Positions 35,155 through 63,670 of a DNA stretch of 64,000 nt are shown here, one piece after another. A model generated the notes under the pieces. The model saw only the letters and a list, made by a program, of their open reading frames with translations. It was not told the DNA's origin and did not search any database. A program made the position numbers and the translations under genes. Origin of the DNA: Helicostylum pulchrum (Eukaryota; Mucoromycota; Mucoromycetes; Mucorales; Mucoraceae). Each line of letters starts with the position of its first letter. Within the stretch, counting starts at the first letter, position 1. Location of the stretch: NCBI GenBank assembly GCA_025677825.1, contig JAIXMO010000062.1, positions 62,001 to 126,000 of the forward strand. Direction: 5' to 3'.

Positions 35155-35445
35155 TATCTGGTCTTTATTCCCATAAAAAGGAGCTTGTATGAATCAAGTT
35201 GGACCAACAAGTATCTACTATACGTATATAAAAATGATTAACTAACAAGTACGAGTATATAAAACAAATACACGCGTAAAACTGGGTTCTATTTTATCTC
35301 AATTTTTTTTTACGAGTCTTTTTTATTCTTCTTCATTTATTATTTTCTCACAGACTTATACGGGCCCTTCTTGGAGAAACTGGTATCCGTGATCAGTCGC
35401 CTCTTTTTTTTACTGGGCATGTAAACCGAACGCGTACCAAGAATC
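35155..35445 (+). repeat. Shared 5' leader, copy A
   Basis: Contains CATAAAAAGGAGCTTGTATG followed by AATCAAGT, then the spaced blocks TACGTATATAAAAATG and AAGTACGAGTAT, the CTTATACGG..CCCTTCTT..GAGAAACTGGTA block, and GTAAACCGAACGCGTACC. The closest relative is copy G at 53.5 kb. Confidence 0.8.
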
Positions 35446-35521
35446 CCGTCTACTTTTTATAATAATTTGGTAAAGATCACGAGACAAGAGGTACAAAAAG
35501 GTCGCCTCCAGCGTCTAAAGT

Positions 35522-37062
35522 ATGAAACAAAGGCAAAAAGTCCAATCAGGTCGGACGTATATGGTATCTACTCTCAGTAGTAAGTTGAACTCTACTTGAA
35601 CGCCACCAGAACATCAATGCTTACTTATTTATCTATTTAGCCTCGAACTTCTTAGCCCGTACCTCTGCTAGAGTGGCCAGTGAAAGGATTCAACAAATAC
35701 TGGCCAGCTCTAAGAAAGGAAAAACTCCAGAATCAGTTGCAGACGTAACGACTTATTTTGTTTCTTTCAAATTGAAGTAGTTGTTTTTTTTTACTAACAT
35801 ATCGTTTTGATAGGCTACTGAAGCTGACAAAGTTTTCGTATCTGGAAGTGATAATTCTGTGGGGACCTTGGTCAAGAGAGAAGCCTCGCGGCTTTACGAT
35901 CAATATAACTGCTTCGAATACAAGGGCAAGTCAATTACTGCGTAAGTAGATTGAGGGGGTTTTTTTTTGTAAGCAGAACGTTTTAGTTGTCTGACAGTAG
36001 CGACATTAAGTCTAGGGCTCAATTCTATTTTAGACTTATCTAGTAAGGACTCTCTTCAAAAAAATAATATTTAGCAAAGAAGACTGGCGCTCTCTCCGCG
36101 ATACTTTTCCAAAGCAGTTTGATAAGTATAGCTTCGTGTTGAACAATAACTTGGAAACTAGTATTTCCATAATCGAAAAGGTTCGTGGTAACACGTCGAT
36201 TATTGACACTGAATCCATACTTATAAAAGATTACATAGGGGAGAGAGTGCTGGAGATTCCGATGACATAACTGGAAGCTCAGGCTTCAAGGTTGACCTGA
36301 TAGTGTTGAAAAACACTTTATGGCGAAGACGAAAAGAAGCTGGCAAGGCTAACGATGAGATTGCCAAAAACAATCCAAGCTTAAACAAAGTAACTTCGAT
36401 CGAACGAAGTTACATATCGAGTCTAAAGTAGTGCTGGATAAGCCAATTAAAGAAGTCTTAAAAAAGGACCGAAATGTCTGTATTCCAAGTCTGCAACTCG
36501 CAGGTACGTCAATTTTTACAAATCAAAGCAAAACAGTATCTCTAATTTTCAATAATTTGTAGGTACAAAAGTAACGCTCTACTCGCTTAGACTCGGAGCT
36601 AATGGTTTATACATAGCTGCAAAAGAAGAGTCTGCGGTAATTCCGAACCATGCTTCGAAGATAGGTCATTTTAAAAATGTTTTAAAGTTGCTTTTCAAGT
36701 TTAAGGTAAGGTCAAGAAAGCTATTTTATTGAAAGAAACGTTCTGATAAATACAGAAAAACATTATTATAAATCTGTCAAGTTTGAGCTTAATAGAGGTC
36801 GATGACAGTAGCGATAGTAGCAGCGATAGTAGCGGCAGTAGTAGCAGCAGCGTATCTAATTCTTGGGTGCGAGGTGCTTGGATCCCTCAAAACCCCACTA
36901 AGAAGACTAGGCTATCTGACATACCACATGTCGAGAAGTGTTCCAAACTCTGTTGGAGAAATGTACCACCAAGTTCAAAAAATGTTCGATTTGAAAATGG
37001 AAGCACTGTACTTTTTAATAAACTACTTGTTGTACCAAAATTAAGATTTTCATTGCTGTAGA
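35522..37062 (+). pseudogene. Modular-family gene, copy A (type-A body), frameshifted
   Basis: The 5' half is well preserved. Exons 35522-35579, 35641-35744, 35814-35941 and 36075-about 36240 join in phase and read MKQRQKVQSGRTYMVS, ARTSARVASERIQQILAS, EADKVFVSGSDNSVGTL and KEDWRSLRDTFPKQFDKYSF. After 36,240 the frame shifts; the continuing frame carries GSSGFKVDLIVLKNTLWRRR and KEAGKANDEIAKNNPSLN, then a TAG at about 36,429. Later exons (from about 36,561 and 36,763) encode LYSLRLGANGLYIAAKEESA and an Asp/Ser repeat tail ending at 37062. The KVDL...E..K spacing is loosely nuclease-like (PD-(D/E)XK); that is inference only. Confidence 0.55.
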
Positions 37063-38480
37063 ACGTCGAGTGTTTTTTTTTATTTGCAGAAAGAGAATCA
37101 CATTGACGCTAGTACTATTTAAATGAAGTGCATTTAAAAATACACGATGAGTCATTATAGCTACAAACAATAGATTTTGGTTCTGTCTTCTTTTTTAAAA
37201 TAGTTAATACATACCATAAAATATGTAAGCGTTCCTAATTTCGTAAATAGTTTCTGTTTTTATCGTTCTTGTAAAGATTTTAGTTTATAATATTTGAACG
37301 TAGGGGAGAGTTCTCATCAAGTACCCAGAAAAATAGATTGTTTTTTTTTCATTTAAGAAAAAAAAACACATTTCTCTCTCCCCCCAATCGGTTGTATCAC
37401 TTTCTCTTTTTTTTTTAAAAAAAAGTAATGGCATTATGTTAAAATTGAATGCAAAATAATTCTAAAAAAAAAGAGAGCTAGTCATTCATACGTCGTTAAT
37501 ATTTTTTTCCCAAGTGACTTATCATATGCTACTTTACATTTCATACGAACCTTGTCTATCCGAACAAAATGAACGGGTTTCATTTTAAGCTATTACAGGA
37601 ACGTCGGACAAAAATGACGTTTTATTTTTATTTTCTCTTTGAGAAACATTTGATTACGATCGATTCAATATTTGTTTTTTTTATTGTAATTTTTATCGTA
37701 TTTTTTTTCAATTGTGAATCGAATATGGTAAGACAAATAAATACATGTAATAAAGAATTAAGGTATTTAATTTTATCGTAAAGTTTTTTTTTTTTTTTTT
37801 TACATTATCCCTTAATAAAAAACAAAACTTCTTATTAATGCCATCAAGCGTTTATATGCCGTATATAATAAAAATCAAAACAAAATTCTATTTTCTTCTT
37901 ATTTCAATCTAAAGTTACATATATATGCAATCATGTATTAAACAGTTGATACTTTTTTTTTGGGGGATTGTTATTTATCTACTAGCGCCTTTTGCATTTG
38001 CTTAGGATGGAACCAAAAAAAGCGATTTTTGTTTTCCAGAAGGGATTACTTTCCTTTAGGGGTATTATTTATTTTGAAATATTACATATCTGATAGGTTA
38101 TCCACAAAAATAATGGTAAAAATAAAGGATCCTTTCATAACGGAAGGTTATTTTAAGCAATTTTACTTATCACGATTGTCGTAAAATAAGTGTAACCATA
38201 ACAGTCATTCCCTCTTTTCGATAGGACAAAAAAAAAAAAAGATATTTTTTTGGTGTTCTTTTTTGCCAAGTGTAGTATGCAATTACTGGCTGCCTTTTTT
38301 GCTCGTAGCGCTCACGAAGCAGCGTTGCCCTGCGGGTTTGGAGACTTCCAATATTTTACGAAATCTCTCTTTTTCTCATAGGATCCCCTCGAAGAGAGGA
38401 TATAATGGTGATTACCAGACGTCAGTTGAATTTCAATAAGAAGGTTCAATGTTTTAAAGCTCTGTAACTTTTGATTTACG
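37063..38480. other. Gene-poor spacer
   Basis: About 1.4 kb of AT-rich DNA between copies A and B. It includes a T10A8 palindrome at about 37,407-37,424 and an 18-base T run near 37,785. A more GC-rich 100-bp patch at about 38,280-38,420 may be an unidentified coding remnant. Open frames at 37,569-37,781 and 37,960-38,184 lack any recognisable signal. Confidence 0.45.
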
Positions 38481-38559
38481 GCTGATTATGTTCTTGGTAA
38501 GAGATAGATCCGTCTCGAAAAAAACGCACCTTAAAGCGTACCCGTACCCGTACCCATGT

Positions 38560-38721
38560 CAATTAACTCCTTCTTTCTTCAAAAACCAAAGAATCGAAAA
38601 AGGTTTAAGAATAGATTGGAAGTTGTGTTGGAAAGAAGGAAAAAAGGCTCTTGGTTGGAGGTATAAAAACTCGGAAAGCCTTCGATCCCAGTTTTATAAT
38701 TATCAAAATAAAAATAAATAA
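38560..38721 (+). pseudogene. Modular-family tail fragment, copy B
   Basis: Truncated copy retaining only the C-terminal tail module: KNQRIEKGLRIDWKLCWKEG then KKALGWRYKNSESLRSQFYN, ending at a natural stop at 38719-38721. Directly comparable with tails at 39.6, 46.1, 54.8 and 59.3 kb. No leader or body is attached. Confidence 0.65.
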
Positions 38722-39029
38722 TAAATAATATTCATTTTATATACTACAATAAATGAAGGAACTATCGGCAGTATATCTATTCAAATTTTAATGCTTTTCA
38801 TAACAGAAACCTGCCAAGAATTTTAATAAGTAATAGCCCAAACGTGAATAAACAAGTGTATTAACCATCACTTTTCGACTAAAATTTTTCACGTGCCTGG
38901 GAATACACCTTCTTTTTTATCCTACAGACTATTGAAAAGAAGGAATGACATTTAAAATACAAAAAAAAAATATCAGGTCTCTTCGTTATAGGGCTGTATG
39001 TGAGTATTATTGGGTGCATGATTTTATTT

Positions 39030-39375
39030 ACACGTTCAGCTTGATTTTATCCGTGTAAAAAGAAAACTTGTACGAATTAACTAGTACGAGTATTATGAAG
39101 CAAATGGCAGGTCATAATTACGCCACGACGAGGAAATAATTGCATCAGTAAATAGACACCCTATTTTATTAGCTATTTATTTCCTTTTTTTTCTTTTTTT
39201 TTTCTTTTTCTTTATTTTGCTTTAATTTCATGTTTTTCGTTTTTCTTTTTTTCTATGTACGTACGAACTTATATAGTTCTTCTTAGGGTGATGGTTATTT
39301 ATAAAGGTAAGTGAAAAGTAATATGGCACACTTTTTTAATCGATCTTGTAAATTGGCCCTTTTTTTTCTTTTCAG
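39030..39375 (+). repeat. Shared 5' leader, copy C
   Basis: Blocks AAAACTTGTACGAATTAACT, ATAATTACGCCACGACG, CTATTTTATT, TATAGTTCTTCTTAGGGTG, ATGGTTATTTATAAAG and the donor GTAAGTGAAAAGTAATATGG, ending with the acceptor CTTTTCAG at 39,368-39,375. Confidence 0.85.
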
Positions 39376-39381
39376 TTAAAA

Positions 39382-39690
39382 ATGACCACCACGTCAAATC
39401 GTATTTCAAAAGAAGTAACACGGTACCCTGATATTACAAACATCATCAAAAAATCATACAATAATGTATTACAAGAAAAGAGGAAATTCGAAGAACTTGT
39501 TAATGATGGGAGTAATGGGGAGAATGATGATGATGATAATCCTCCGGAAATAACAATGGATTTCGTTGCCAGCTTTAAGGATCAAATAATCAAAGGCGAT
39601 TTAAGAATGAGTTGGAAATTGTGATTGGAAGAAGGGAGAGAAGCACTTAATTGGGATTATAAAAACTCAGAAAGCCAATATTTTATTTCA
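39382..39690 (+). pseudogene. Modular-family gene, copy C (internally deleted type-B)
   Basis: Reads MTTTSNRISKEVTRYPDITN as in copy D (63.4 kb) but jumps straight to KKSYNNVLQEKRKFEELVND. It therefore lacks the central about 130 residues present in copy D, including the D...ExQ region. The tail follows (DLRMSWKL) and is cut by TGA at 39622-39624, exactly at the position where other copies have Cys; reading through, LEEGREALNWDYKNSES continues. One deletion plus one nonsense change. Confidence 0.7.
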
Positions 39691-40008
39691 TACCCACCAC
39701 TTTTATCAACTACGTAACAGAGACCTGCCCAATAATACTTACATACAGCTTTATAACGAAGAGACTTGAAACATATAATGGTCTGATTTTAAGAGTTAAA
39801 ACGTAAGGGGTACGGCACAGGTTCTGAGGTTGGAGAATACAAAAAATATACACAGTCAAAAGTAGATTTGTAACAAATAAAATATTTTATTTTTTATTAA
39901 AGATAATTGCATTATGATATGCCTGTACACATGAAGTTTTTTTTTAGAAAAAAAGACACTGGGGAGCTAAAAAACTGTCTTTTTAAAAAAAAATGATATA
40001 AAGCTTAT

Positions 40009-41826
40009 TTAAAGCTTGGGACCAGCATTGATAGTGGCTTCGGTACTTTCAGACTTGTAAGTTTGGAAGTTGTCGTTGAACATCTTACCAACGTTACGAA
40101 GGGAAGCATTGAATTCAGAAGCGGTACCGTTCCAAGCAGTCTTGGGGTTCAAAAGCTCAGCAGGGACACCAGTGACGGTCTTGGGAATACTCAAGTTGAA
40201 GATTTCAAGTTGATCGTATTTGGCGTTGGCTAATTCACCGTTGTGGATAGCATCGAGAATGGCACGAGTGTACTTGAGAGGACAACGCTTGGAGGTAGCA
40301 GCAGAACCACCAATCCAACCAGTGTTAATCAACCAAGCATCAGCCTTGTGAGCAGACATCTTCTCGGCCAACATGGTAGCATAACGTTGAGGATGGAGAA
40401 CGAGGAAAGGAGCACCGAAACAGGCAGAGAAAGTAGCTTGAGGTTCAACAATACCATCTTCAGTACCGGGAACCTTTGTGGTGTAACCTGAAATGAAATG
40501 GTACATGGCTTGTTCAGCGGTCAATTTGGAGACAGGAGGCAAGACACCAAAAGCATCACAAGTCAACAAGATGATGTTCTTGGGGTGACCACCCATACAA
40601 GGAATCTTGGCGTTAGGGATATGGTAAATAGGGTAAGCACAACGGGTGTTTTCAGTTAAGAAATCGTCAGAGTAATCAACTTCACGGGTCTCTTCATCAA
40701 GAACAACGTTTTCAAGAATAGCTCCGAATTTAATAGCGTTGAAAATATCGGGTTCCTTTTCTCCAGATAAATCAATACACTTGGCGTAACAGCCACCTTC
40801 AATGTTGAAGACACCTTCATCAGACCAACAGTGCTCGTCATCACCAATCAACATACGCTTAGGATCAGCAGAGAGTGTAGTTTTACCGGTACCAGAAAGA
40901 CCAAAGAAGAGAGAGACATCTCCATCAGGACCTTCATTAGCAGAAGAATGAAGAGATAATACACCAGCCTTAGGCATAAGATAATGCATAACAGTAAAGA
41001 TCTACAATATAGAATTCTATATTTAGTAATCTTATTTCTCTCTTTTTTTTTTCCTTTTTTTTTTAAATCCCTTAAAAATACTTACACCCTTCTTCATTTC
41101 ACCAGCATATTCAGAACCGAGAATAACCATTTCACTACGCTTGAAGTTGATGGAAACAGAAGTAGTAGAAGACATACCAGTGGTGTAACGATTGGCAGGG
41201 AACTCACCAGCATTGAAGATAGTGAAATCGGGAGTACCAAAGTTCTCGAGTTCTTCCTCAGTAGGACGAATTAACATGTTACGCATGAACAAGAGATGAT
41301 AGGCACGAGAAGCGACAATACGGACCTTGATACGGTACTTGGGATCCCAACCAGCATAACCATCGAATACAAAGAGACGAGGACGGGTGTTGAGGTAATC
41401 AATAGCACGTTCACGGTTAATCAAGAAGACACGTTCACTAATAGGGGTGTTGACAGGACCCCACCAAACATCCTTAACGGAAGAAGGCTCTTCAACAATA
41501 CGTTTATCCTTGGGAGAACGACCGGTCTTCTTACCAGAGTAGGCACAAAGTGCACCAGCAGAAGAAATAACAGTACCTTGTTCATAAGTTAAAGCTTGTT
41601 CGTAAAGAACAGCAACTGAAGGGTTACGCATAATAGTGACCTAAGAGGGGGGCAAATAAATTAGTTTCTAATCGATTTATCTGCTATACCGTATTTTTAT
41701 GTTTTTTACCTTGTCATAGTCAATACCAGCGAATTCATAAAGATCTTCTTCGAGCTTGGTAATAACTGAGTTAGCAGAAGAAGGTCTACCACCACTATAA
41801 GGAGATCCGGGTCTTGAGGCAACCAT
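40009..41826 (-). CDS. PCK1: Phosphoenolpyruvate carboxykinase (ATP)
   Basis: Cytosolic ATP-dependent PEPCK, converting oxaloacetate to phosphoenolpyruvate, committing step of gluconeogenesis. Exons 41826-41710, 41640-41086 and 41001-40009 give 554 residues (yeast Pck1 549). Landmarks: [39 protein letters not shown], the kinase-1a P-loop [16 protein letters not shown], the kinase-2/metal site [20 protein letters not shown], and [14 protein letters not shown]. The third exon ends at a TAA at 40009-40011. Likely glucose-repressed as in other fungi; no specific element identified in the 5' region. Confidence 0.98.
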
Positions 41827-43393
41827 TTTTGTTGTAATTTATAAAGTGAGGGGGGGAAAAATAACTTAATAATAATAAAAAAAAAACTGCTTTATGTTTT
41901 GCTTTATATATACAATAAAAAATTGTGTTCCTCGGAAGGAACGGAGTTAGACCATGACTTTGTTATTTACTATTCGTCCAATACCGGAAAACGTACGTTA
42001 AAGGGGGAACAGAGAGAAGGACCCCAATATAGAGTTACGTTTTTTTGAATGTCCGTAGCATGTGCGTTTTACACCTTTGAGGGCGGGATATGACGGAAGT
42101 GTTGAAGGTCCGAGTTGCTCCTAAAAAAATAAATTGTAATAGTTACCTGTACAAAACGAAAACCGAATGATTTGTTTAAAATTGATGAGGGGACGTTTGT
42201 TTTCTTTGTAGTAGAGTTCAATTTAAACAGTGTTTAGACTACTGGTAGAGTATAGACAAGAATGCAGCATTTAGAGAGAATGAAATCAAGGCTTTCCCCA
42301 CATTTTTAATGATCCAATCAAATGTTATGGGACAAGAAAAAGAAATCGTGGGAATTGTATTAGAACTACGCTTTTTTTTTTAGTCTTTTTAATAATTGTT
42401 GTTTGGCTATTTAGTAGCACACACACACACACACACATAAATAAAACTGGGTATGGTGCACCAATACTTTATAAGCTTGTAGTTTGATTTACTAAATGTT
42501 ATATATCAAAAAGTTTTATAAAAAGTAAACAAATATAAAAAATGGTAAATTTCTGAGTCTAGATACTCTTTAAAAAAGACTATTCTTTTTTATGTGTATA
42601 TGACTAATGTTTTGAGAAGGCGTGCCCTAACTATCCCTGACACCATTAAAAAAAAAAAGGCCGGGTTCGATTTGATTTGATTCTTTCACATGAATTATAG
42701 GAAAGGGGAGGGTAGGGCACTGGTCACTTTTCTCTAATTCATAAGCTGAAATAAAAAAAGGGTTTTACAGATGTAACACTAATTACTTGAAATAAAAAAA
42801 AAGATGAAGGTGCGTCATATCATAATCCTGCAAAATACAGGTGCCGAAAAATTGGGACACTGGCAGATTCAAATTGACTCTGTATAATAGTATCTAGATA
42901 GTGAAAACTCTTCTTTTACCAGTTACGACATTATCATTACAAAATTAGTATGAGTGCAGCTACAAAATAAAATAAAAAAAGAGAGGTATAAATTATGTTT
43001 CCGATCTATTAGAAACAAGGGTTTGTGGCTGCTAAAGATACCTGAAACCATTCTTTCTATAGTACTGGGGATTATGTTCCAATACGAATAGTATAGTACA
43101 TGTAAAAAAAGTGTCTCTAGGTCAATTGTCAGGATAGAATATCGTTCAAAGGCATTAAACAATATATCATTTTACTCCAAGAAAAAGTGATACGAAGCTA
43201 ATTCATAGTCAGTTAGCATACATCACTACGTATGAGACCATTCTTTAAAATATTACGTAACAAACCAACGTAATAATCCGAGTCTAGGCCAAATCGTATT
43301 TATCTACGACGTAATAAGTATTTTTTTTTCCTTTGCATACTTGGTTTTTTTTTCCTTTTTTTCTTTCTGTAAACTTTTTTTTTAAAAAAAAAA
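41827..43393. other. Intergenic between PEPCK and BAG genes
   Basis: About 1.6 kb divergent upstream region. Includes a (CA)10 run at about 42,418-42,437 and ends with T9A10 just before the BAG-gene ATG. The minus frame at 42,923-43,162 has no coding signature. Confidence 0.6.
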
Positions 43394-48214: not shown

Positions 48215-48475
48215 GCGAATATGAAACAAATAGTGGTATAATTACGCCATGATCGCATGAGTAGCGGAGGCCCTATTTTATCTTTTTTTTTAAAACAAGT
48301 CTTTTTCAGTTGTTAATTTATTTTGTTATTATGTTTTGTTTTCGTGTTTCTGTTGTCTGTTCGTATAAAGCGATATGGTTTCTCTTAGAGTAATGGCCGT
48401 CCTTAAAACGTAAGTGAAAATAACATACTTTTTTTAACCAACCATGTGTAAATTAACTGTATATCAAGGACTTCT
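48215..48475 (+). repeat. Shared 5' leader, copy E
   Basis: Blocks ATAATTACGCCATGATCGCA, CCCTATTTTATC, the upstream ORF at 48331-48393, GCGATATGGTTTCTCTTAGA, ATGGCCGTCCTTAAAAC and the donor GTAAGTGAAAATAACATAC. Confidence 0.8.
48331..48393 (+). other. Upstream ORF in leader copy E, stop overlapping next ATG
   Basis: 20 codons (MFCFRVSVVCSYKAIWFLLE) ending in TAA, whose last A is the A of the next ATG (TAATG at 48391-48395). The peptide resembles the one at 63,477-63,536. Confidence 0.55.
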
Positions 48476-48479
48476 TGAG

Positions 48480-50449: not shown

Positions 50450-51500
50450 ATGACCAGGTTGTTAAAAAAGTTCCCATATTTTATATCTCATTTTTTAGGT
50501 TATCGTAAACCGAATTATGTACCAAAAAAATTACCACAATGGAGAATATATTTCTGGTCTTTTTTAGCAGCTTGGATTGGTATTGGATTATTAGAGATAA
50601 TATTTATTTACTCTAAATCTTTTCAGGACCATCACACACCCATGATTATTGCATCATTTGTAAGTAAACATTCGCAACGAACAAAAAATTGATTGCTTTA
50701 TATAGTAACAAACAAATAAAAAATTATAGGGTGCAGGTGCTGTCTTACTTTATGGTGTTGTAGATTCTCCATTAGCTCAACCTCGTAATGTCATTTGTGG
50801 TCAACTAGTTGGTTCCGTAGTAGGTGTCATTATTGCACAATTGTTTCTTACTGTTGAACAAAACTGGGCTTTTATTGGACAAAAACAAGTGGTAGAATGG
50901 GTAGGGGGAGCTACAGCTATGGCACTAGCGTTAACAGTTATGCAGCTAACTAAAACTGTTCATCCTCCTGGTGGGGCAACTGCATTGATTGCAGTGATTA
51001 CACCAACTATTGTGGATATATCTTGGTTTTATATTGCTATTGTGTTGGTATCTTCAATTACGCAGGTCGTAATTGCATGTCTGATCAATAATATTGAACG
51101 TAAATACCCTCTGTATTGGTGGAGTCCTTATGAAGCTATTAAATTAGATCCCGCTACATTGGTTACACTTATGCCAAATACAGATGATAACCAAAAAGAA
51201 GAAGTGGTAGCGAATAATTTGACGGCGGCAGAAGAAGGTATTTTAAATAACAAGGTGGATCTACCTGCATTTAAATCTAGTGCAATATCGTCTTCAATCA
51301 CTTTGCAGACAACAGGTGCTGTTGATGGGGCACTAAGTGTTTTACAAAAACATGTAGAGAGTTCTCGTACTCCGTATCTTGTGATATCGCAAAGTTTAAT
51401 CGTTACGGCAGATATAGAACTGGATGAAAAAGAAAGAGATGTGTTGCAGGGTTTAGTTCAGAAATTGAATGCGGCTACACATAATATGGAAAAATATTAA
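50450..51500 (+). CDS. HPP-family integral membrane protein 1
   Basis: Exons 50450-50659 and 50730-51500 give 326 residues. Four hydrophobic segments follow a short cytosolic start (WSFLAAWIGIGLLEIIF; GAGAVLLYGVV; LVGSVVGVIIAQLFL; FYIAIVLVSSITQVVIACLI) with the family signature TVHPPGGATALIAVITP. HPP proteins of cyanobacteria and plastids have been linked to nitrite transport; fungal members are uncharacterised. A C-terminal about 150-residue soluble region is shared with the downstream paralogue. An in-frame alternative first exon (ATG 50288, reading MPGVSWSTSSGFFQVV..., spliced at GTACGA to 50470) is possible. Confidence 0.88.
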
Positions 51501-52067: not shown

Positions 52068-53072
52068 ATGACTAGATTAGAGAAATTTCCATATTTTATA
52101 TCATACTTTTTAGGTTATCGTACACCCAATCACAATAAAAAACCTATACCGCAATGGAGAGTTTATGTTTGGTCATTTTTAGCAGCTTGGATCGGTATTG
52201 CTTTATTAGAAATCATCTTTACTTACTCTGAATCATTTCAAAATCACGATACACCTATGATTATTGCCTCCTTTGTAAATATTATACTTCTATTTTCTGT
52301 ATACCTGTATATATTTACCGATGTTTTTTATTTCTAGGGTGCTACAGCAGTTTTAGCTTATGGTGTGATTGAGTCACCGTTAGCTCAGCCTAGAAATGTT
52401 ATTGGTGGACATACGATCGGATCAGTAGTAGGAGTGATTATTGCTCAGCTTTTTCTTAATATACAACACAATTGGGTTTCAGAATCTCAAAAGATGGCAG
52501 TGACTTGGGTTGGTGGAGCAACAGCTATGGCACTAGCTTTAAACTTGATGCAATTAACAAAGACTGTTCATCCACCTGCTGGTGCCTCTGCGTTAATTGC
52601 AGTTGTCACTCCTAATATTGTAGAGATGGCTTGGTTTTATATTGCTGTGGTGATAGTATCAGCTATTGTACAGGTTACGGTTGCTTGTTTGTTGAATAAC
52701 GTTGAACGTAGATATCCTCAGTATTGGTGGACGCCTCATGCACCGATCAAGATTGATCCACTGACAGTGCATACACTTATGCCTTCGTCGGATGAGAAGG
52801 TGCCAGAGGACGTTGTGTCGGATAATTTAACGCAAGCTGAAGAAGGTAGATTGCAAAATAGATCTATGTCTAGTCAAGTTTCGACGTGCACTTCAGTAGG
52901 CGTTGTTGAACATGCGCTACTGGTGTTGAGAAAACATGTTGAGGAATCTGATACTCCATTTGTTTTGATATCACCTGGTTTACCTATTGTTGCTACACAT
53001 GGATTATTTAGCCCTAGTGAATATGAAACTTTAGAATTGTTATTACAAAAATTAAATGCCAAAGCACCTTAA
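52068..53072 (+). CDS. HPP-family integral membrane protein 2 (tandem paralogue)
   Basis: Exons 52068-52274 and 52338-53072 give 313 residues. Intron position is identical to HPP gene 1 (after IIASF), showing tandem duplication. Signature TVHPPAGASALIAVVTP; same four membrane segments and same C-terminal module (HALLVLRKHVEESDTPFVLI, ending LLQKLNAKAP). Begins MTRLEKFPYFISYFLGYR, supporting the equivalent ATG for gene 1. Confidence 0.9.
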
Positions 53073-53489
53073 TTTTTCTCTCTTTTACACCAACTTTTTC
53101 CTCCTTATTTATACGGGCACGACCAAAGCAGAAAATGTATTTTGTGGTGATAGTTTTTTTTTTTCTCACAAAAAGATTATCAATCCCAGATTTCGCATAA
53201 ATAAAGCCATTGGCTGTTCGAATCTAGGTGTAGTACTATCTTTCCTGTTTAAATGTTTGTGACCTAGCTCGTTCTTATGACAAATTGCATACCACACTAG
53301 TATTAGTAGGTTTATTCATACACTATTTCACTACTTTTTATCTTATTTCGACTCGTTTTCACGTCAGGCTCCACTAATGGAGACCTTGCAATCTCTTGTT
53401 TTTTAGTTATGCTGTACTATTTTCAAAAATCCTTTATGCCCAGTTCGTTTTTCAGTCCCGTGATTCTTGTGAGAGGATTTACTTTCAAC
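53073..53489. other. Spacer, no gene seen
   Basis: About 420 bp between HPP gene 2 and leader copy G, no recognisable feature. Confidence 0.5.
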
Positions 53490-53830
53490 TTAATCTTTAT
53501 TCGCATAAAAAGGAGCTTGTATGAATCAAGTCGAAGCAACAAGTACTTACTACGTATATAAAAATGTTTAACCAAGGTATAAGTACGAGTATAATACGAC
53601 ATAATGAGTAAATATATCACATGAATAAAGTGGCTTTATTTTATCACTTATTTATTTTTATCAAATCTCTTTCTTTTTTTTTTCTTCTTCTTCTTCATTT
53701 ATTATTTTTTAACTTATACGGTCCCTTCTTAGAGAAACTGGTACCTGTAAAGGTACGTATGTGAAAATTGATCTATCACACCCCCCCCCCTTTTTTTTTT
53801 ACTGAACGTGTAAATAGAACGTGTACCAAC
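53490..53830 (+). repeat. Shared 5' leader, copy G
   Basis: CATAAAAAGGAGCTTGTATG plus AATCAAGT as in copy A, AAGTACGAGTATAATACGAC, TCACATGAATAAAGTGGC, CTTATACGGTCCCTTCTTAG, AGAAACTGGTACC and GTGTAAATAGAACGTGTACC. Confidence 0.85.
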
Positions 53831-53939
53831 TTTATAAACGAAAGAAAATTATGCCTTAAACAAAATTCAGTTTCTTTAAACAATGTAATTAACCGAAAGT
53901 ATTTCGAGTTTATTTGGATTTTTTTTTCCTTCGTTACTT

Positions 53940-54905
53940 TGCTTAACGAGAAAAATTACTGTACAATGAGGAAGCGGAAAGAGCCATTAACACGGCAATA
54001 TGCAATTTAAAGAGGAGAAATAATGTCAATCTTGATAGCCTAAGCGCGTTTGAAAATAAATGGTCCGAGGTAAGTGCCTATGCAAAAGAATCAAACGCAT
54101 TGTAAGAGCTAGCTTTAGTATAGTTTCTGAATTCTGTTGAAGGTATAATGTACTTTCAAATAAACACCACAAAGCGAAATATTGTTGCTGAAGGTTTGGT
54201 TGAGCATAATTACCGCCTTAGCACAAAACTCTCTTTTTACAATGAACAGGTAGGATAGCTCGTACTAAGCCTTAAAGCTACTTAAGCGCTGATCACTGTT
54301 TGAAATAATAGATTGGGGACTCAAATAAAAGAACCCGAGCCAAATCGCCGGTAAGTGGATATCTACTTTCTATTACGCTAAACTAATGCACATCATAACC
54401 TACAGTGTAAATTGAAGCCACTCATAACATAACCAAAAAAAAAAAAAGGTTCGGTATAAACGAGATTGATTAATGAAGAACAGGCTACTTTATATCTTAT
54501 TTCAAGTCGTGCTTATGCCAGAATTATTGAAAAAGACGCTAGTCTTATTTCTGAATTTAAATGCTTGAGTGACATCCATTTTGATCAGTACAAGCAAATT
54601 CTAAAAGATGATTCGAAGCGAAGAAGTGAAGTACAAGGTTTCGTTTCAAAATCTTATGAAAATATACTTTGATAAAAAAGAAGACTCGATTAACTAATTT
54701 TTATAAAACTGCGATCGAAGACTTTCAGAATTTTTGTAGTCACAACCAAGTGCCTTTTCTCCTTTCTTTAAACATAACTTCCAATCCATTCCTAAATTTT
54801 TTTCGATTCTTTGATTTTTGAAGTTGGCGACGTATTCCATTGATTTTTGATAGAACGTTTCTTCAAAATTAGAGCCATCATTCCCAGCAAGTTCTTCGAA
54901 AACAA
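53940..54905 (+). pseudogene. Modular-family gene, copy G, with internal inversion
   Basis: After leader G, exon-like sequence AERAINTAICNLKRRNNVNL ends at a GTAAGT donor (about 54,070). A later exon (54466-54672) reads YLISSRAYARIIEKDASLIS and KQILKDDSKRRSEVQGFVSK. It aligns with copy D but stops where D continues into KFEEL. The missing continuation is present on the opposite strand at about 54,905-54,697 (FEELAGNDGSN, EYVANFKNQRIEKNLGMDWK, LCLKKGEKALGCDYKNSESL, then TAG). Plus-orientation 3' flank resumes after it. Non-functional as it stands. Confidence 0.65.
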
Positions 54906-56134
54906 AATAAAATTTTTGCTGCTCTTATATAACTATCAAATTCCATTCATTACTATCATTTCTTATTCGTCGTATATAATATAATAAAGGAAGGAACTAT
55001 CAGCAGTTTTTTTTTCTGACAGTGCTCCTATTATGATTCATATTGGTCATACAAAAGAAATTTATTTATAAATATATGTTCCTGATCAATAATAAGTGTA
55101 GCTTGTTAAACAAACGATAATATAGCGAGTTCTCTTCCAAACTCATTAAAGTAAAGTAACGACTAGAGTGTTCACATTACTACATATATGCTTGCGTCCA
55201 CTGATATTATAGTAAATAAGGATAAAATACACGAATAATTGAAAAAGTGAAATAATTAATGCAAGAAGAGTATTCCAATCACAAACAATAGAAAAACATC
55301 AAACTTCAAAATAGGTAATATAATATACTTGTCTACGTGTAATATATCCACAGTAAGATCAATTCTAGATCATAGGCGTATATTAGTGAACTTATATATA
55401 TATATGGTACCTGAACTGGAAATTATGTTGAAGTAACCAATAAATTGTATATAAAAAAAAATGCTTTTTTTTCTATTTTGTAAAACTCTCCATAATATCG
55501 TACGAATATTTTGAACTAAATTTTATAAAAGTTCAAGAATGGTATGGCATGCGTTTTGGGTTTGACAAAAAAAAAAACTGAGCTCAATAGGTCTAAATAA
55601 AGTTAGTACACTATAAAATAAGTTTCGGTATGACCTTTAACTTTTTATTCAAAAGGTTCTTTTTTTCATCTATATTTTTTTTTCAAGATGTTGGGTTTTA
55701 AACGTAGTTAAAATTAGTGTGAGAAATTAAAAAAACTATAAAAAAGGTATTCTGTTTTTATGATTTTATAAACATCATCAGAGCTAAATAAATAAGTAGA
55801 ACTCCATGTGTATGAGATTGACACATAAAAAGTTACGATAAATAAGTGTTACATTTTTGCTCAATTTTAAAATAGTTTTTTTTGTACGCTATTAAAACTT
55901 GGGGCGGAAACTTTTTTTGAGTTCCCATTTACAGCAAAATTGCACTTAAACAGAAAACAAAATAAAAAACCCTTTTACGGGAAAGAACTTTCCCGTCAAT
56001 TGATTATTTTATCCCTTTTTTAAAAAAATAAATATCTTTTTTACCTTTTTCTTTTATTTATCCGTTTTCAGTCTTGTTCTCTTTTCTCTCTCTTTTCTCC
56101 TTTTTCTTTCCTTTTATATATACATATATATAAT
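54906..56134. other. 3' flank of copy G and AT-rich spacer
   Basis: The first about 150 bp (GAAGGAACTATCAGCAG, TCTGACAGTG, GTTCCTGATCAATAA) resemble the 3' flank of copy F at 59,390-59,480. The rest is AT-rich with no gene. A T6A7 palindrome lies about 115 bp before the velvet ATG. Confidence 0.5.
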
Positions 56135-57376
56135 ATGTCTTGTACATATCGATTTATGCATTCTTCTTTATCTGAGTTATCAAATGATAGGTATTCAAGA
56201 TTTATGATCATCAAATTATTATTTTTGACTTACAAAAACCTCGTATGTTTAAACTGCATAGAAGTTACAATGTTATTTTAAGACAACAACCAGAGCGAGC
56301 AAAAATAAGTGTTCCTAATGAACGAGATAAACGATCAATTGAACCCCCACCTATTTTACAACTACAATGGATAAATTGTACCGAAGAAGAAGAAAAGTAT
56401 GTTTTTATCACCACCAAAAAAAGAAGAAAAAAATAACAATTGTTTTTTTTTTAGAAAATCACTTCAAAGCCCATTTTATTTTATGGTTGTAAATATCATT
56501 CAAGTAGAGTCAAATGTTATTTTATCGTCTCAAGAATATTTATCGGGTTCTACAGTCTCTTCTTTATATAGGTTAAGAGATATCGATAATACAGGTACTA
56601 TAAAAAGCCTTTTTTTAAAACTCATTTTTGGAGATGATGTTATCTTGAAATATTAACGTATATATGAATATATAGATGGTGGTTTTTTTGTATTTGGAGA
56701 CTTGGCAGTTAAAAAGCAAGGTCATTTTAAGTTACAATTCAATCTGTTTGAGTTAATAGAGTAAGATTTATATCTCACATGGAAAAAAAAAAGTCATTGG
56801 TGTAACGTTTCTCTCTGTTTTTTTTTCTAGTGAAAAAGTAGAAAATCGTAAAGTAGTTTATTCAAATGAGTTTTGGGTATATACAAATAAACTCTACCCG
56901 GGACCGATCGAATCGACATTTCTATCACGTACATTTGCAGACCAAGGAATAAAGATGAGAATAAGGAAAAATCTCGGTCATACGGAAGAACTAAAAAGGT
57001 ATAAAATGGATATAAAAAGAAAATTTAATTTTTCTTAATAACAAATAACAGTAGGACGAATTTACGTAAACGGAAAGGCGATATACCATCATCTTATAAG
57101 ATTATACCAAAGGATATTGTCTGTCCTCCATCTTATGCCTCAGATAACGTTCATTTCGGTAGATGGCAATCGATACCGACTAAATCTAAAAAGTTAAATT
57201 CAACACTCGCGTCACCTACTTTACTTTATTTACCTCCTATCACTTCTATACAACAAAAGTGGCTAGACGATGATCGGTATAGGTGTAATCGGTTACCTCC
57301 GTTAAATGAAATTGTTAATAATAAGCAAGTTGATTCTTATTCTCCATTTCCTATAGATAGTTCTTTTTTTAAATAG
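56135..57376 (+). CDS. Velvet-domain transcriptional regulator
   Basis: Exons 56135-56190, 56262-56396, 56455-56594, 56676-56760, 56831-56998 and 57052-57376 give 302 residues. The velvet fold (about residues 19-195) shows [89 protein letters not shown] and [12 protein letters not shown]. Velvet proteins are NF-kappaB-like fungal DNA-binding factors coordinating development, light response and secondary metabolism. The sequence places it with VelB/VosA/VelC-type members but I do not separate them. The C-terminal 100 residues are basic then Pro/Ser-rich. Confidence 0.93.
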
Positions 57377-57789
57377 ATACTTAAATGGTTAAAATATTCC
57401 CCCGCCCCCCATTTTGTAAATAAATTTTTTGCGTTAAGTACATGACATCGGTTTTTTTTTGGTCCGCAGTAACACCAGGATCCCGTTAATGCTGTAAATT
57501 ACCTTAACTAGATTCTACCATATTTTTCTTTTTAGTATAGGAGGAGCTAAAAACATGGTGCACCACCACAACTTGGGTCGCCCTTTTTTTAAGAGAGTAG
57601 GTCTTCACATAAGGCCTTCACATAGTCGGTGAATGTTCGTTTTTAGACTTCCTTGGTAAGTTTTTTCTCAAGCAGCCTGTACAGGCTTCGAAGTTTTATA
57701 TTTCCTGGTACACGAAAAAACGTTTAACCGAAAAGCGATAGTTTACACACTTGTTCATTTAGCGTTTGGCTATTACTTGATGAAATTCT
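57377..57789. other. Spacer, no gene seen
   Basis: About 410 bp downstream of the velvet gene; includes a short C-run (57,401-57,410) and no credible reading frame. Confidence 0.5.
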
Positions 57790-58155
57790 CGCTACATGAT
57801 TTAGTTATTCACACGTTCAACTTGGCTTTATCTGCATAAAGAGAAAACTTGTATGAATCAAGTCAGGAAAGCGAGTACACACTTGTATAAGTACGTGAAT
57901 ACTAGTATGTTGATATAATTACGCCATGATTAGTAAATAGATCACATGAGTAAATAAAGTGACTCCTCCTTATTTTATCATCCTTTTTATCATTTTTTTT
58001 TCGCGTTTTTTTTTTTCATTTTTGTTTCTTTTTATGTTTATGCAAATTGATATGGCTCTTCTTAGCGCAATGACCATCCTAAAGGTACTTTAGTGAAAAG
58101 TAACAGGACATTTTTTAATCGGCCCTGCAAATTAAACCAAGCATCTTTTCACAGG
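57790..58155 (+). repeat. Shared 5' leader, copy F
   Basis: Blocks AAAACTTGTATGAATCAAGT, ATATAATTACGCCATGATTA, GTAAATAGATCACATGAGTA, CCTTATTTTATC, TTGATATGGCTCTTCTTAGC and TTTTTTAATCGGCCCTGCAA. The upstream-ORF stop is lost here (CAATG instead of TAATG) and the donor is altered to GGTACTTTAGTG. Confidence 0.85.
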
Positions 58156-58344
58156 TGGTAAGCAACAGACGAAAGACTTGAAAAAAGCTATCGGTTTAAC
58201 ATTTTTTCGTGTATCAGGAAATATAAACCTTCGGGATATGGGTATACGACCGTAAAACTGGCTTCCTTTTCTTTGGCTATTTTAAACGTATAAGGTTTAT
58301 AAAGATACAGCCTGAAAGTTCAAGTTCCTTTGTTACAAGGTTAC

Positions 58345-59472
58345 ATGAATATAACGGAAGAGGAGCAGCTATTACAACTGGATATAAGAACAAACAATAT
58401 CAGAGAAGCTCGAGAGGTAGTAACATTGTTAATTCAATAACATCATTTGAACAAGTATTTGTTAAATTGAGCTTACTCATATTTTTTTCTCAGGCTCTTA
58501 GACAAATGACAAGCTCACCAAAGCGCAAATCAGAAAGAATAGTAGCAAGCCATGTAAAAGAGCATGTCATAGCTGTAGGCGACATACTGATATCCTATTA
58601 CAAGATATTGTTTGAAAACAGATATCAAGTGGCTTTATCGCTATTGTTGGTCTTGGGTGTACATTAGGAACCCCGGATATTAAGACTTGATGAAGAAATT
58701 AAAGTTAAAGACTCCAACTCGAATTATTGCTTATGGTATTTAATCAATTAAGGAGGTATGGTACTCGGTTTATCTGTTATGTTTATTCTAGGCTTTCAAA
58801 AAATTGTATCATTGACCTGGATTTTAAAAGCAAGCAATTAAATCAAGTTGAAAGCCAAGTGTTGTCATTTGTTGCAAGATATCGTAACTCGCCCACTATC
58901 GCTACTATCGATAATACTATATTAATAAACGCGTTGAAAGTGTTAACAATAGCAGGCAATACTAAAGACGCCAAACTAGTATTAAACGTTGTAGAGCAAC
59001 GAAGATTCAATAATAATGAAGAACGGGCCATTAAAATATTTATCGTCATACCTTGAAACATATAATATTTAAAAGTCACACCCTAAGTAATCAATATGTA
59101 CTTAATTGTACAGAGTTGCCTTTGCTTATCAAAACCTGGCCGTATGTCTTTGAGGAATATTTTGGATATAATAACCAGTTATTCATCTTTAAAAGTCAAT
59201 GGGATTCGTTACCAACTTCAAAAATCAACGAACTAAAAAAAGGCTTACGTATGAATTGGACATTATGCTTTGAAGAAGGAAAAAAGGCACTCAATTGGAG
59301 CTATAAAAATGCAGAAAACCTTCTATCTCAATTTTCTAAATATCAAAAAAAAATATTCCAACGCTCTTATACCTCAAATTTCATTCTTATGAAAGAGCTA
59401 TCGGTGTTTTTTTTTTCTTCTGACAGTGTCATACAAGTGAAATTTATACATACACATATTCCTGTTCAATAA
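58345..59472 (+). pseudogene. Modular-family gene, copy F, decayed
   Basis: Exons 58345-58416 and 58494-58667 join in phase (MNITEEEQLLQLDIRTNNIR, then ALRQMTSSPKRKSERIVASH, VIAVGDILISYYKILFENRY) and end at TAG. Downstream frames continue with SQVLSFVARYRNSPTIATID and ALKVLTIAGNTKDAKLVLNV. Then, in another frame, a body piece (VLNCTELPLLIKTWPYVFEE) is followed by the tail (KKGLRMNWTLCFEEGKKALN, YKNAENLLSQFSKYQKK). Several frame changes and stops, so likely broken. Confidence 0.5.
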
Positions 59473-59983
59473 GCGTAGCTTAGTCGGAATATCGAAGAGT
59501 TGGCTCACACTGACATAGTGCTACGTCCAATTAATTTTATCTTACACTTAAAAGGGGCTTCGTGCAGGTCCATCATCTTTCATATTCTCCGGTGTGACAC
59601 GTAGCTCCATCTTCTTTTAATGTAAAACCTCTATCTAAGTAACACCGTCTTCTTTTGGTGAGCTACGTGGCTCACGACATTTACTTGTTATATTTGTTAA
59701 GGGTATATTGTGTTGAATTATGGTATTAATGAGAAAAAAGTTGGTTTTATTGAAAAGGACGTTTGAAAAAACGCATAACCAAAATGCATAAAAATAATAA
59801 CGTAGCCCTGACACACACACACAAAATATTGTTCCAACTTATTTCATGAAAACCAATCGAAAAGACTATATTAGCAAAATGACAATACTTTAATTCAATT
59901 AAAACATGGTCATAAAATAAACTAAAATTCTTCCATCTATTTTTTTTACATTAATAAAACTGTTGAATTTATCTACATATACT
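59473..59983. other. Spacer, no gene seen
   Basis: About 500 bp between copy F and the HERP-like gene. Contains a CA run near 59,811-59,821 and a short inverted motif pair (TAGCTCCATCTTCTTTTAA / GAGCTACGTGGCTC). No coding sequence. Confidence 0.45.
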
Positions 59984-61191
59984 TTATATTACCCCTTCTC
60001 TTTGGTCATTGTTTTCAAACGCTTGTGCAATAAGTGGATCCTGATTATAAGTAGGCCACAAAGATGCAAAAAAAGTATACGCACCTCTCTTAATGATATC
60101 CAAAGTCGTAGGAGGTCTAGCCGGAGTAGTATCTCTTACACTAGCTTCTTGTTCATCATCATTGTCTTGTTGAGTAGGTACAGGTGGTGGTGCTACACAC
60201 ATATAACATTTAATCACACCTTTTTCTTAAAGAATAATTATATACACACTTACCTCTTTGTGCCATAGGTCTAAACCTTTGATTCATATCTTCTACACGT
60301 ACACGTCGAAGCACAAATCTTAATCTACCCGTCTGATACAAGAAAAACACAAACGCAATCAAGTGAAAGATAAAAATACGCTCAATACTAGCACCTTGAC
60401 AAACCATAAATAAAAACACAATTAATTTTAATGCAAGCCAAATAGATGCTGCTCTTTGACCAGGACGATTATTTTGAACTTGTGGTAAAGCATTTATAAA
60501 AGGTTGAATGTTTGGGTCTGCTTGAGGAAGAGGTTGCTGTTGGGTATTTGGTGTAAAGTTAGGTAAAGGTTGTGAAGGGACTAAAACGGGTGCAAGGTAA
60601 TATTGTCCACTATATTGTTAAATAAGTTACTTGAGGAGGGGGTTTTAAATATATTATGCTTTTTTCTTACTTTATAGCAACAACTTGATAACCACCAGGT
60701 AATACGGATGGATATGCTGGAATGTTAACGTCGGGTTGTAAAGAAGGTAAAGTTTCGTTAATAGTAGGAGTGGGGTGAACAATAGGTTGGATAGGTTGAC
60801 TGAAACTTTGAGGTTGATGGAAGGTTTGAGGTTGACTGAAACTTTGACTTGAGCTTTGACTAGGTAAAGTAGGTTTTACAACTAAATGAAAAATGGGTGC
60901 TGCTTCATCTTGAGCCTACACAAGAAAAAAAAAGTTTAAAACATACTCATTTGTTGTCACTTATTATACGTTTACATTCTTAATAATATTACAGAGTAAT
61001 TCCTCATCTTGCAACAGTTTTCCACTATAAATTATTCGCTGGTTATCTGCAGTTGGGTGATGAGGATGAACAGGTTCGATCGATTCTTTTAAATTTAATA
61101 CTGTTGCGTTTAATTTCGTTGTTACTATTAACGTTTCATTAAGCGAAGGTGATCGAACATGAATAATTATATCTGAATCCAATTCTTGCAT
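59984..61191 (-). CDS. HERP-like ubiquitin-domain ER membrane protein
   Basis: Exons 61191-60976, 60915-60671, 60609-60254 and 60192-59984 give 341 residues. N-terminal ubiquitin-like domain (residues 7-80: DIIIHVRSPSLNETLIVTT, DNQRIIYSGKLLQDEELL), a Pro/Gln-rich linker with QPQSFSQP repeats, then two hydrophobic segments (ASIWLALKLIVLFLFMVCQ; IERIFIFHLIAFVFFLYQTG). A C-terminal stretch, GAYTFFASLWPTYN, resembles the FSSLxP end of HERPUD proteins. These organise ER-associated degradation with the Hrd1 ligase. Start at 61191 because upstream codons are a homopolymeric Phe/Ser stretch. Confidence 0.82.
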
Positions 61192-61814
61192 CTTTTGTGT
61201 TAAAGAAAGAAAGAAAGAAAAAAAGAAAGAAAGAAAAAAAAAACAATAAATTCGTGGTCGAATTAGGACCGAGTATTTTTTTTTGGCATAAAGAAATAAA
61301 TGTACCACTTATACTATGCTTATGTTACAATTAAAAAAGTATTGTATTCCATTATAAAAAGAACAATAATAACAATAAATAAAATTAAAAAAAAAGATAC
61401 ACTAAATACGAAATGTAAAAATGTATCAGCATAAAAAACTTCATACGCATGCCAAAAGTCGCCTCAATGTTTATATACATATACACTAATTGAAAAGCAA
61501 CATTGTCGTCTTTGTGTAAATAGTCATATAATTTGTATGCTTCGTGATAGGGTCATCTATTAAAAGGCTTTGTTTCGAAATAATTTTATTGATAGTTACT
61601 GTTTGAAAGGAAAAAAAAAGAACTGCAAAAGATATAAATACTATTTAGTGTTTACTAAAAAAAAAAAAAATCACATTCTCTCGACATCTTCCTTCTTATC
61701 ATCTTCTTACGTCTCCTCTTATGTTTCTTCTTCATCTTCTTCGGCTTCTTCATCCTTTTCATGCTCCTCAACTTCTTCTGCATCATCATCATCGTCTTTT
61801 TCTTGAAATTCCTT
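61192..61814. other. Spacer with acidic-repeat remnant
   Basis: Upstream of the HERP-like gene. The pyrimidine-rich plus strand at 61,680-61,810 reads on the minus strand as Asp/Glu-rich codons interrupted by two TAA stops (EEDEEET*EET*EDDKKEDVE), a likely decayed acidic tail. No intact gene. Confidence 0.45.
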
Positions 61815-61823
61815 CGCAGGACA

Positions 61824-62545
61824 TTATTCGACATCACTTGTCGAACCGCTGGAACTAAGACGTTTTTTGCCTGCTAATGATAATACTAGTATATCAAAAT
61901 GATAAATCGCATACAGATGATATGAAATGAACGGGATACTTTAGGTACTAGATCAGCCTTCTGAATTGTACCAGAGGTGTACTAATAAAGCTTCGGCTCG
62001 AAAACCTTTACTTGTGGACTAGGTCTTGTAGTGGAAATGCTGCTTGGTCTACCGTAGACATTTTTAACCAAATTTATTTCATCTTCAGTGCTACGCTTAT
62101 TGTTCTGATGTAAATCTTTCAACTCATCAATCATATTCTAATGAAAATGAGTGAAGTCAAGTTAGTATCTCATGCACCTCCGATATTTTTCACAATTGCT
62201 TCCCATTACATACCTCTAAGGTAATTAAACCCTTTATTAAAGCGTCAATGTCCCCACCTTTTAATTGCTTGATGGTTTTGGGGTAGGAAAAGCTATATAC
62301 TTCATCAAGAACATAAAGACCCTTGTCGATTAGTCGTAAAGTACTGATATGACAGGTAAATCCCATCAGCTGTACTATCGGAAACTTGGTATTTAGTTGT
62401 CCATTTTGAAGACTCGATATAGTAATTAAGATGGCGTTTGGTCACAAGTACTGATTTTAACTTGCAACAGCAGATGATTTTGCCTGTCATCATATCAAAT
62501 TGTTGTTCGTCAGCCATAGTGACAGTCCGCATATTCAATTTCGAC
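61824..62545 (-). pseudogene. Type-A C-terminal module remnant (copy D, distal part)
   Basis: Minus strand. A readable exon (SSLQNGQLNTKFPIVQLMGF, TLRLIDKGLYVLDEVYSFSY, KQLKGGDIDALIKGLITLE) ends at a GTATGTAATG donor. It is followed after an acceptor (ATTAG) by NMIDELKDLHQNNKRSTEDE and GRPSSISTTRPSPQVKVFEP. Another GT-AG step leads to GKKRLSSSGSTSDVE and TAA at 61824-61826. It matches the 3' part of copy A (LYSLRLGANGLYIAAKEE; KKTRLS). Frames do not join cleanly to the type-B part upstream. Confidence 0.55.
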
Positions 62546-63410
62546 ACGGTACAAACAGGTGACTCCGTCTCACCTGTTTGTACCTCTCTTCTTCAACATA
62601 AGCATTATTATTATCTAAAGAGCTGTCATCATCTGCAAGTTCTTCAAACTTCCTCTTTTCTTGCAATGTATTATTGTACGATTTTTTGATGAAGTCTTCT
62701 ACTTCGCTTCTTGGCTTTGACTCATCTTTCAATAATACAAGAACTTGTTTGGACTGACCGTCGTACATATCCCCCAAGTCCTTCATTCTTGAAACGAAAT
62801 TTCTATCTTTCTCCGTGATTTTGGTATAAGCATCATTAGAAATGCGATACAACTTTTGCCTAGTCGTATCGTCATTTCTAGGAGCTAAATTTATTGATGT
62901 TTCTTGTGAAGTCAAGAAAAGGCAATACTCCGCGAAAGGATCGAGCTGACCAGTTACATGTTCACGGATGCTGTTCTCGTCAGCGATGTAGCAGCAGTCT
63001 TCCCAATAATTATAAATTGTTTTGTAGAGAAAGAGATCTGCGCATTTTGTTAAGTCTGGCGTAGTATCATTTCAAATAGGGTTGATTGAGACGATCAGCA
63101 AAATAGAGTCTCTATCAAATCTTTTATATGCTTGTAAACAATAGTTTACGGCTCTCTTCATAAACTCTTTATCAACAACTTGTTGAAACTCTACGATTAT
63201 TGGTGGGAGGTTATTGTTTGGGCGAGGCTCAAGAAGGATATCCGATTGTGTGCCGTTAGGCCAATCGGTATTCCCGCAGATATACTCGTTTTCAACATTT
63301 ACGAGTGCTTGCGTGATGATGTTTGTAACATCTTTATGTCGTGTTACTTCTTTTGAAATACAATTTGACGTGATGGACAATTGTAACTGAAAAGAAAAAA
63401 AAAGAGTCAA
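62535..63410 (-). pseudogene. Modular-family gene, copy D (type-B body, PD-(D/E)XK-like), broken
   Basis: Follows leader D; the exon begins at 63386 after CTTTTCAG. Reads SITSNCISKEVTRHKDVTNI, WPNGTQSDILLEP, NLPPIIVEFQQVVDKEFMKR, AYKRFDRDSILLIVSINPI, then TGA at 63074-63072. The same frame continues: LTKCADLFLYKTIYNYWEDC, DPFAEYCLFLTSQETSINLA, NDAYTKITEKDRNFVSRMKD, KSYNNTLQEKRKFEELADDD. It stops at 62535 inside a hairpin. D57, E74 and Q76 form a D-x16-E-x-Q pattern followed by a helix, as in Rpn/YhgA-type PD-(D/E)XK proteins; this is inference. One nonsense codon plus a disrupted 3' end. Confidence 0.65.
62548..62584. repeat. Perfect 15-bp inverted repeat, 7-nt loop
   Basis: Left arm GGTACAAACAGGTGA (62548-62562), loop CTCCGTC, right arm TCACCTGTTTGTACC (62570-62584). 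All 15 positions pair. It coincides with the point where copy D stops resembling other type-B sequences. Confidence 0.95.
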
Positions 63411-63670
63411 TTTACAAGGTCGATTAAAAAAAAAAATGGGTCATAATACTTTTTCACTTACCTTTAAAAATGACCATTACCCTAAGAAGAACCGTATCGG
63501 TTTGTACGATAACAAAAGACAAGCAAAACGAAACATAAAAACAAAAAGTAAAGTAATAAATGAAGAAGAAAGAAGAAAAAGGACACATTGAAAAAAAAAA
63601 AGAAAGATAAAATAGGTGACGAAAAAGGGCGTCTATTTACTCATGTGATAAATTTATTCGTTTCAAATAC
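63405..63670 (-). repeat. Shared 5' leader, copy D
   Basis: Minus strand: TTTATCACATGAGTAAATAG, CACCTATTTTATC, CAAACCGATACGGTTCTTCT, TAGGGTAATGGTCATTTTTA, AAGGTAAGTGAAAAAGTATT and TAATCGACCTTGTAAATTGA. The best-preserved leader in the window. Confidence 0.88.
63477..63536 (-). other. Upstream ORF in leader copy D, stop overlapping next ATG
   Basis: 19 codons (MFRFACLLLSYKPIRFFLG) ending TAA; the final A is shared with the following ATG (TAATG). Pattern MFxF...SYKxIxFxL is shared with copy E. Confidence 0.55.

What the first reader, a model, noticed from the sequence alone, without database searches (positions are those of the whole stretch)
35155..63670. A dispersed 5' leader drives several different coding modules
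At least seven places (16.96-17.17 -, 35.2 +, 39.0 +, 48.2 +, 53.5 +, 57.8 +, 63.4-63.7 -) carry related, collinear leader blocks: ACTTGTATGAATCAAGT (itself an interrupted palindrome, ACTTG/CAAGT), TAATTACGCCATGA, CTATTTTATC, GATACGGTTCTTCTTAG, a short ATG exon, a GTAAGTGAAAA donor and TTTAATCGACC..GTAAATTG. The sequence after the leader differs between copies (type A, B and C bodies). No terminal repeats or transposase are visible, so this looks like a gene family that shuffles bodies under a conserved promoter/leader rather than an ordinary transposon. Collinearity is seen in the sequence; the interpretation is inference.
Basis: partly seen in the sequence, partly recalled or inferred. Interest (0 to 1): 0.8.

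Follow-up and report, generated by a model that had tools for sequence, protein, structure and literature searches.

The report
Jumping DNA heading many fungal genes
The repeated leader is a short mobile DNA element with inverted ends, scattered through the genome of a Mucor-like mould, and it keeps turning up just in front of genes of several families, so it may be a movable gene start region.

Summary
In detail: all seven window places carry related leader copies and the bodies differ. The reading changes. The leader is a MITE-like, non-autonomous DNA transposon (14 complete copies, 294-776 bp). The 'TTTAATCGACC..GTAAATTG' block is the right inverted end and the 'GTAAGTG donor' lies just inside it; the 'ATG exon' is kept in 7 of 24 copies. 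The host is Helicostylum pulchrum (Mucorales). The link to genes is nonetheless real: among 138 leader places, 18 leader-gene pairs with three multi-copy protein families lie within 1.5 kb; the gene start faces the element in all 18, and in 15 the leader points at it (expected 0.30 and 0.12 per class). So a MITE repeatedly sits at gene starts, mostly in one orientation, much as mimps do before Fusarium effector genes. Whether it drives transcription is untested, target-site duplications are weak, and no transposase was linked.

The parts
63405..63702 (-). Leader element, subtype A; left inverted end near 63686-63702, right end trimmed at the junction with the body
62538..63380 (-). Body of family A (PD-(D/E)XK-like by motif only), broken by an in-frame stop near 63072
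62193..62441 (-). Remnant of family B1 behind the family A body
57800..58133 (+). Leader copy, weak, mosaic of subtypes
58709..59352 (+). Body with a B1-like piece (E 0.003) followed by a family A tail
53470..53800 (+). Leader element, subtype B
54490..54696 (+). Fragment of family A (middle part, 49% to the 63 kb body)
54703..54843 (-). Family A tail fragment on the other strand
48230..48460 (+). Leader copy, subtype A right half
39060..39355 (+). Leader copy, mosaic, right end trimmed, followed by TTTTCAG and an ATG
39382..39675 (+). Shortened family A body: first 29 codons joined to the tail
38578..38712 (+). Family A tail fragment
35155..35452 (+). Leader element, subtype B, with a recognisable right inverted end near 35428-35442
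35520..37058 (+). Broken multi-exon body; its last exon resembles the body behind another A leader (L091, 51%, E 2e-11)
16932..17170 (-). Leader copy, subtype A, with right inverted end at 16932-16955

Best explanation
The leader is a family of short, non-autonomous terminal-inverted-repeat DNA transposons (MITEs, at least three subtypes A, B, C) in Helicostylum pulchrum. Copies sit at the 5' side of genes, notably of three multi-copy and often broken protein families, and mostly in the orientation in which the pyrimidine-rich interior and a GGTAAGT/GGTACGT site point at the gene. Shown: inverted ends, copy number, no long reading frame in two copies checked, position and strand relative to three gene families. 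Inferred: movement by a transposase supplied in trans (perhaps MULE-type), insertion preference for gene 5' ends, and use of some copies as promoter or 5' leader.
For: 325 end sites against 1 in the reversed control. Opposite end found as inverted match in 23 of 40 C copies and 9 of 40 B copies; 14 complete copies. No frame above 67 aa in L051 and L037. Gene link: 98 A/B leader places against 133 body loci give 11 same-strand downstream pairs, 0 opposite-strand downstream, 0 same-strand upstream, 1 opposite-strand upstream, expected 0.30 per class; 8 without query-source loci, P 1e-9. Replicate with 40 C copies: 4, 0, 0, 2, expected 0.12. First coding-like stretch downstream same-strand in 19, opposite in 1, none in 2 of 22 non-window A loci and 9, 4, 2 of 15 further loci.
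Against: Target duplications are convincing in few copies: 3 of 14 against 6 of 182 mismatched pairs. No transposase gene with these ends was found. An inverted-repeat search found end pairs in only 3 of 6 loci tried. Orientation bias is absent in small samples: B loci 2 same, 2 opposite, 3 none of 7; window copies 3 same, 4 opposite. The downstream-upstream contrast is P 0.06, and 0.25 with the second sample pooled. One end site lies on the 3' side of a body (C89), and at 1.5-6 kb the orientations are mixed. No RNA data.
Confidence: 0.75

Rival explanations
1. Passive passenger: a MITE that merely prefers or survives at gene 5' ends and near tolerated, decaying genes, with no effect on expression.
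For: Upstream neighbours also tend to face the element with their 5' end (10 opposite-strand, 5 same-strand, 7 none of 22); downstream-upstream contrast only P 0.06; deletion of two mimps in Fusarium did not change expression (PMC3599309, abstract and passages).
Against: 15 of 18 pairs with the three families have the leader pointing at the gene; 19 to 1 in the first sample.
Confidence: 0.45
2. One reading: a gene family whose bodies are exchanged under an inherited promoter and leader, not a transposon.
For: Collinear leader blocks before different bodies; a fixed leader-body junction shared by 63.4 kb, 39.1 kb and, with only the right end left, L010.
Against: Inverted ends bound the leader. 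Only 17 of 133 body loci have a scored leader within 1.5 kb. Leaders are 66-88% alike in DNA while the bodies behind them are often below 45% alike in protein.
Confidence: 0.08
3. The leader MITE belongs to the MULE elements of this genome that carry a TnpB/Fanzor-like frame.
For: PF10551 has 20 matches; at C108 and at C138/C32 a leader-type end abuts the right end of such an element.
Against: The elements' own shared termini are GAACSYCCTTATTTACC, with unrelated flanks in the C94 copies; the other half of the MITE is not on the left.
Confidence: 0.12
4. A non-coding RNA gene such as a spliced-leader or snRNA gene.
For: Exon-like block followed by GTAAGTG and a T-rich stretch.
Against: No Rfam match at gathering score in the window and four element loci; no tRNA in the window; the T-rich part belongs to the inverted end.
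Confidence: 0.02

Closest known systems
mimp (miniature impala) MITEs in promoters of Fusarium oxysporum SIX effector genes (PMC3599309; abstract and passages seen)
   Same: Short TIR element without coding capacity, within 1.5 kb upstream of genes of an accessory kind, several gene families sharing one element type.
   Different: Mimps are 200-220 bp with about 27-bp ends like impala (Tc1/mariner). Here 0.3-0.8 kb, ends of about 45-50 bp starting GGG, a conserved GGTAAGT/GGTACGT site and an orientation bias, in a Mucorales fungus; body functions unknown.
Mutator-like elements (MULEs), including the MULE-Mucorales group (PMC6446971; passages and one table row seen)
   Same: Table row: 10-bp target duplication, 40-bp ends; MULEs have 8-11 bp duplications and tend to insert in or near genes. 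The few duplications seen here are 9-10 bp.
   Different: No transposase linked to these ends; end sequences were not compared with that group.

Membership tests
MITE (non-autonomous TIR element) | Terminal inverted repeats bounding a short unit | tested here: met
MITE (non-autonomous TIR element) | Many dispersed copies | tested here: met
   138 distinct listed leader places from four subtype searches, capped lists
MITE (non-autonomous TIR element) | No transposase gene inside | tested here: met
   two copies checked: longest frames 51 and 67 aa
MITE (non-autonomous TIR element) | Target-site duplication | tested here: inconclusive
   3 of 14 copies against 6 of 182 mismatched pairs
MULE superfamily | 8-11 bp target duplication | tested here: inconclusive
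MULE superfamily | MULE transposase gene between the same ends | tested here: not met
   five MULE elements looked at, ends read on both sides in three; own termini differ
mimp | Impala-type (Tc1/mariner) ends | not tested
   mimp end sequence not retrieved in any call
mimp | Position within about 1.5 kb upstream of accessory genes | tested here: met
   for three multi-copy families

The most novel reading that the evidence does not exclude
A mobile promoter with its own splice donor: the element brings a transcription start, a 5' exon and a GGTAAGT/GGTACGT site; splicing from that site to an acceptor near a neighbouring start codon removes the element's right end and plugs whatever gene it lands beside into a common expression programme, like a natural gene trap.
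Probability: 0.22. Interest if true: 0.75.

Novelty: new variant of a known kind. Interest (0 to 1): 0.5.

Why it matters
It extends the mimp-like pairing of a MITE with accessory genes to an early-diverging fungus, gives an end motif that can be scanned in other Mucorales genomes, and offers a clean test of whether such elements act as movable 5' ends or merely settle at gene starts.

Tried and rejected
MULE elements as partner: their own termini differ. Rfam and tRNA origin: nothing. Pfam and NCBIfam for the bodies: nothing above cut-off; PDDEXK_2 at E 0.11 for family A. An AlphaFold model of a family A homologue (P0010) had mean pLDDT 46.6, so no fold search was made; 'PD-(D/E)XK-like' rests on a conserved D...E-x-Q pattern recalled as typical, not shown. 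Fanzor/TnpB-like is recalled from motifs; Pfam found nothing in the 178-aa piece. Viral, phage, plasmid and prokaryote collections were not searched because they do not hold this kind of genome.

Full report
What is there. The window is C128:62001-126000 of a 32.19 Mb genome in 168 contigs. Two family proteins place it in Helicostylum pulchrum: P0018 lies on a 183,686-base contig and P0029 (100% to the C83 body) on a 480,909-base contig, the lengths of C119 and C83 (lineage).

What the leader is. Aligning 24 A copies showed a right boundary ...GACCGTGTATCAAGATTTCCCC followed by unlike sequence. The reverse complement of that end also opens the left side of complete copies. The pattern GGGRAAWTCTTGRTACACGKTC with up to 3 mismatches has 150 + 175 places, the reversed control 0 + 1 (100 places listed). 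A complete 424-bp copy of a third subtype C (L051) was searched with 40 of 205 candidates scored; 23 of the 40 show the opposite end as an inverted match, as do 9 of 40 B copies. A general inverted-repeat search found such end pairs in 3 of 6 loci (L037, L030, L045). The 14 complete copies used for testing measure 294-776 bp. Two checked hold no frame above 67 aa. GGTAA is kept in 23 of 24 A copies, ATG upstream of it in 7 of 24; B and C copies have GGTACGT there.

Target duplications. Of 23 loci listed, ten were left out (duplicates L003 and L051, composites, or one poor end) and L029 was added. In these 14, 3 reach a score of 6 or more (10 of 10 bases in L050, 8 of 9 in L052, 9 of 10 in L080) against 6 of 182 mismatched flank pairs (P 0.01). 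This hints at 9-10 bases, as in MULEs (8-11; passage of PMC6446971), but most copies show none.

Bodies. Family A (63.4, 39.1, 53.5 kb, and a tail at 57.8 kb) has 47 matches with the window query and 71 with a homologue. 28 homologues at E up to 0.001 were listed for the C165 copy, those with names from Mucorales; that copy is 81-90% identical to eight of them, among them proteins of Phycomyces, Rhizopus, Benjaminiella and Mucor, which is high and may mean that this gene moves too (inference). Family B1 has 45 and 58 matches, B2 has 18. The pieces scanned have no Pfam or NCBIfam match above cut-off. The window bodies at 63.4, 39.1 and 35.2 kb are broken or shortened.

Leader and body together. 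Body matches were merged to 133 loci (65 A, 51 B1, 17 B2). Of 98 A/B leader places (split second pieces dropped), 11 pairs on 10 leaders have a body within 1.5 kb downstream on the same strand, 0 downstream on the other strand, 0 upstream on the same strand, 1 upstream on the other strand; expected 0.30 per class. Three of the 11 involve loci that supplied queries (C128 twice, C83); 8 remain, P 1e-9. The C copies, searched last, gave 4, 0, 0, 2 with 0.12 expected. So in 18 of 18 pairs the gene start faces the element and in 15 the leader points at it (one body, on C109, counts twice). Against this: among the 100 listed end sites, 7 lie on the 5' side of a body and 1 on the 3' side (C89), and between 1.5 and 6 kb, for 81 leaders and 47 family A places, five further pairs are in mixed arrangement. 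Only 17 of 133 body loci have a scored leader nearby, so the leader is not an inherited part of these genes.

Orientation towards any gene. With a codon-usage score trained on 32 long frames, the first coding-like stretch downstream is same-strand in 19, opposite in 1, absent in 2 of 22 non-window A loci; B loci outside the window 2, 2, 3 of 7; window copies 3 same, 4 opposite of 7 (the score misses broken bodies). A second sample of 15 loci gave 9, 4, 2 at the same threshold of 6.26. Upstream of the 22 A loci the nearest stretch is opposite-strand in 10, same-strand in 5, absent in 7. Downstream-upstream contrast: P 0.06 for the first sample, 0.25 with the second pooled. The A loci were ranked by likeness to the 63.4 kb leader, so the sample is not neutral.

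How it may work. Most likely the element is moved by a transposase in trans and settles at gene 5' ends; in the favourable orientation some copies may serve as promoter and 5' leader. At 63.4 and 39.1 kb the right end is trimmed and a TTTTCAG acceptor follows, 75 and 69 bases after the GTAAGT site; L010 keeps only the right end and the acceptor. An ATG follows directly at 39.1 kb and in L010, not at 63.4 kb. This looks like one leader-gene fusion passed on by duplication. It is inference without RNA.

Literature. Mimps lie in the promoters of all known SIX effector genes of Fusarium oxysporum f.sp. lycopersici, yet removing them at two loci did not change expression (PMC3599309, abstract and passages). 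My searches on MITEs in Mucorales, Helicostylum genomes and MITE promoters listed no title or abstract reporting this element; only the open-licence library was searched and listings were capped.

Noticed in passing
L054-L065 (C108:61.7-69.7 kb, C138:54.6-62.6 kb, C94:130.0-132.7 kb, C94 near 34.3 kb, C32 near 16.2 kb): Five 97-98% identical MULE elements (PF10551) with termini GAACSYCCTTATTTACC; four keep an upstream frame with TnpB/Fanzor-like motifs (recalled), the C94:130 kb copy lacks it by internal deletion. Right ends of C108 and C138/C32 abut leader-type ends.
   Followed up: partly
L020 (C165:46666-47682 +): An open 361-aa family A frame is 81-90% identical to proteins of distant Mucorales genera, far above the family's usual likeness within this genome; possible recent transfer or mobile gene.
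   Followed up: partly
L046:5008-5574: An A leader and a B leader lie back to back in one 567-bp unit bounded by an A-type and a B-type end, with different frames on the two sides.
   Followed up: no
L050 and L051 (C93:197750-198380 and 235700-236340): The same C element with its flanks in inverted orientation 38 kb apart on one contig: an inverted segmental duplication.
   Followed up: no
window 50467-51175 and 52083-52783: Tandem pair of HPP-family membrane protein genes (TM_HPP).
   Followed up: no
P0028: A Choanephora protein named Tc1 transposase carries a family A piece at its C-terminal side, as if family A DNA sat next to or in a Tc1 element.
   Followed up: no
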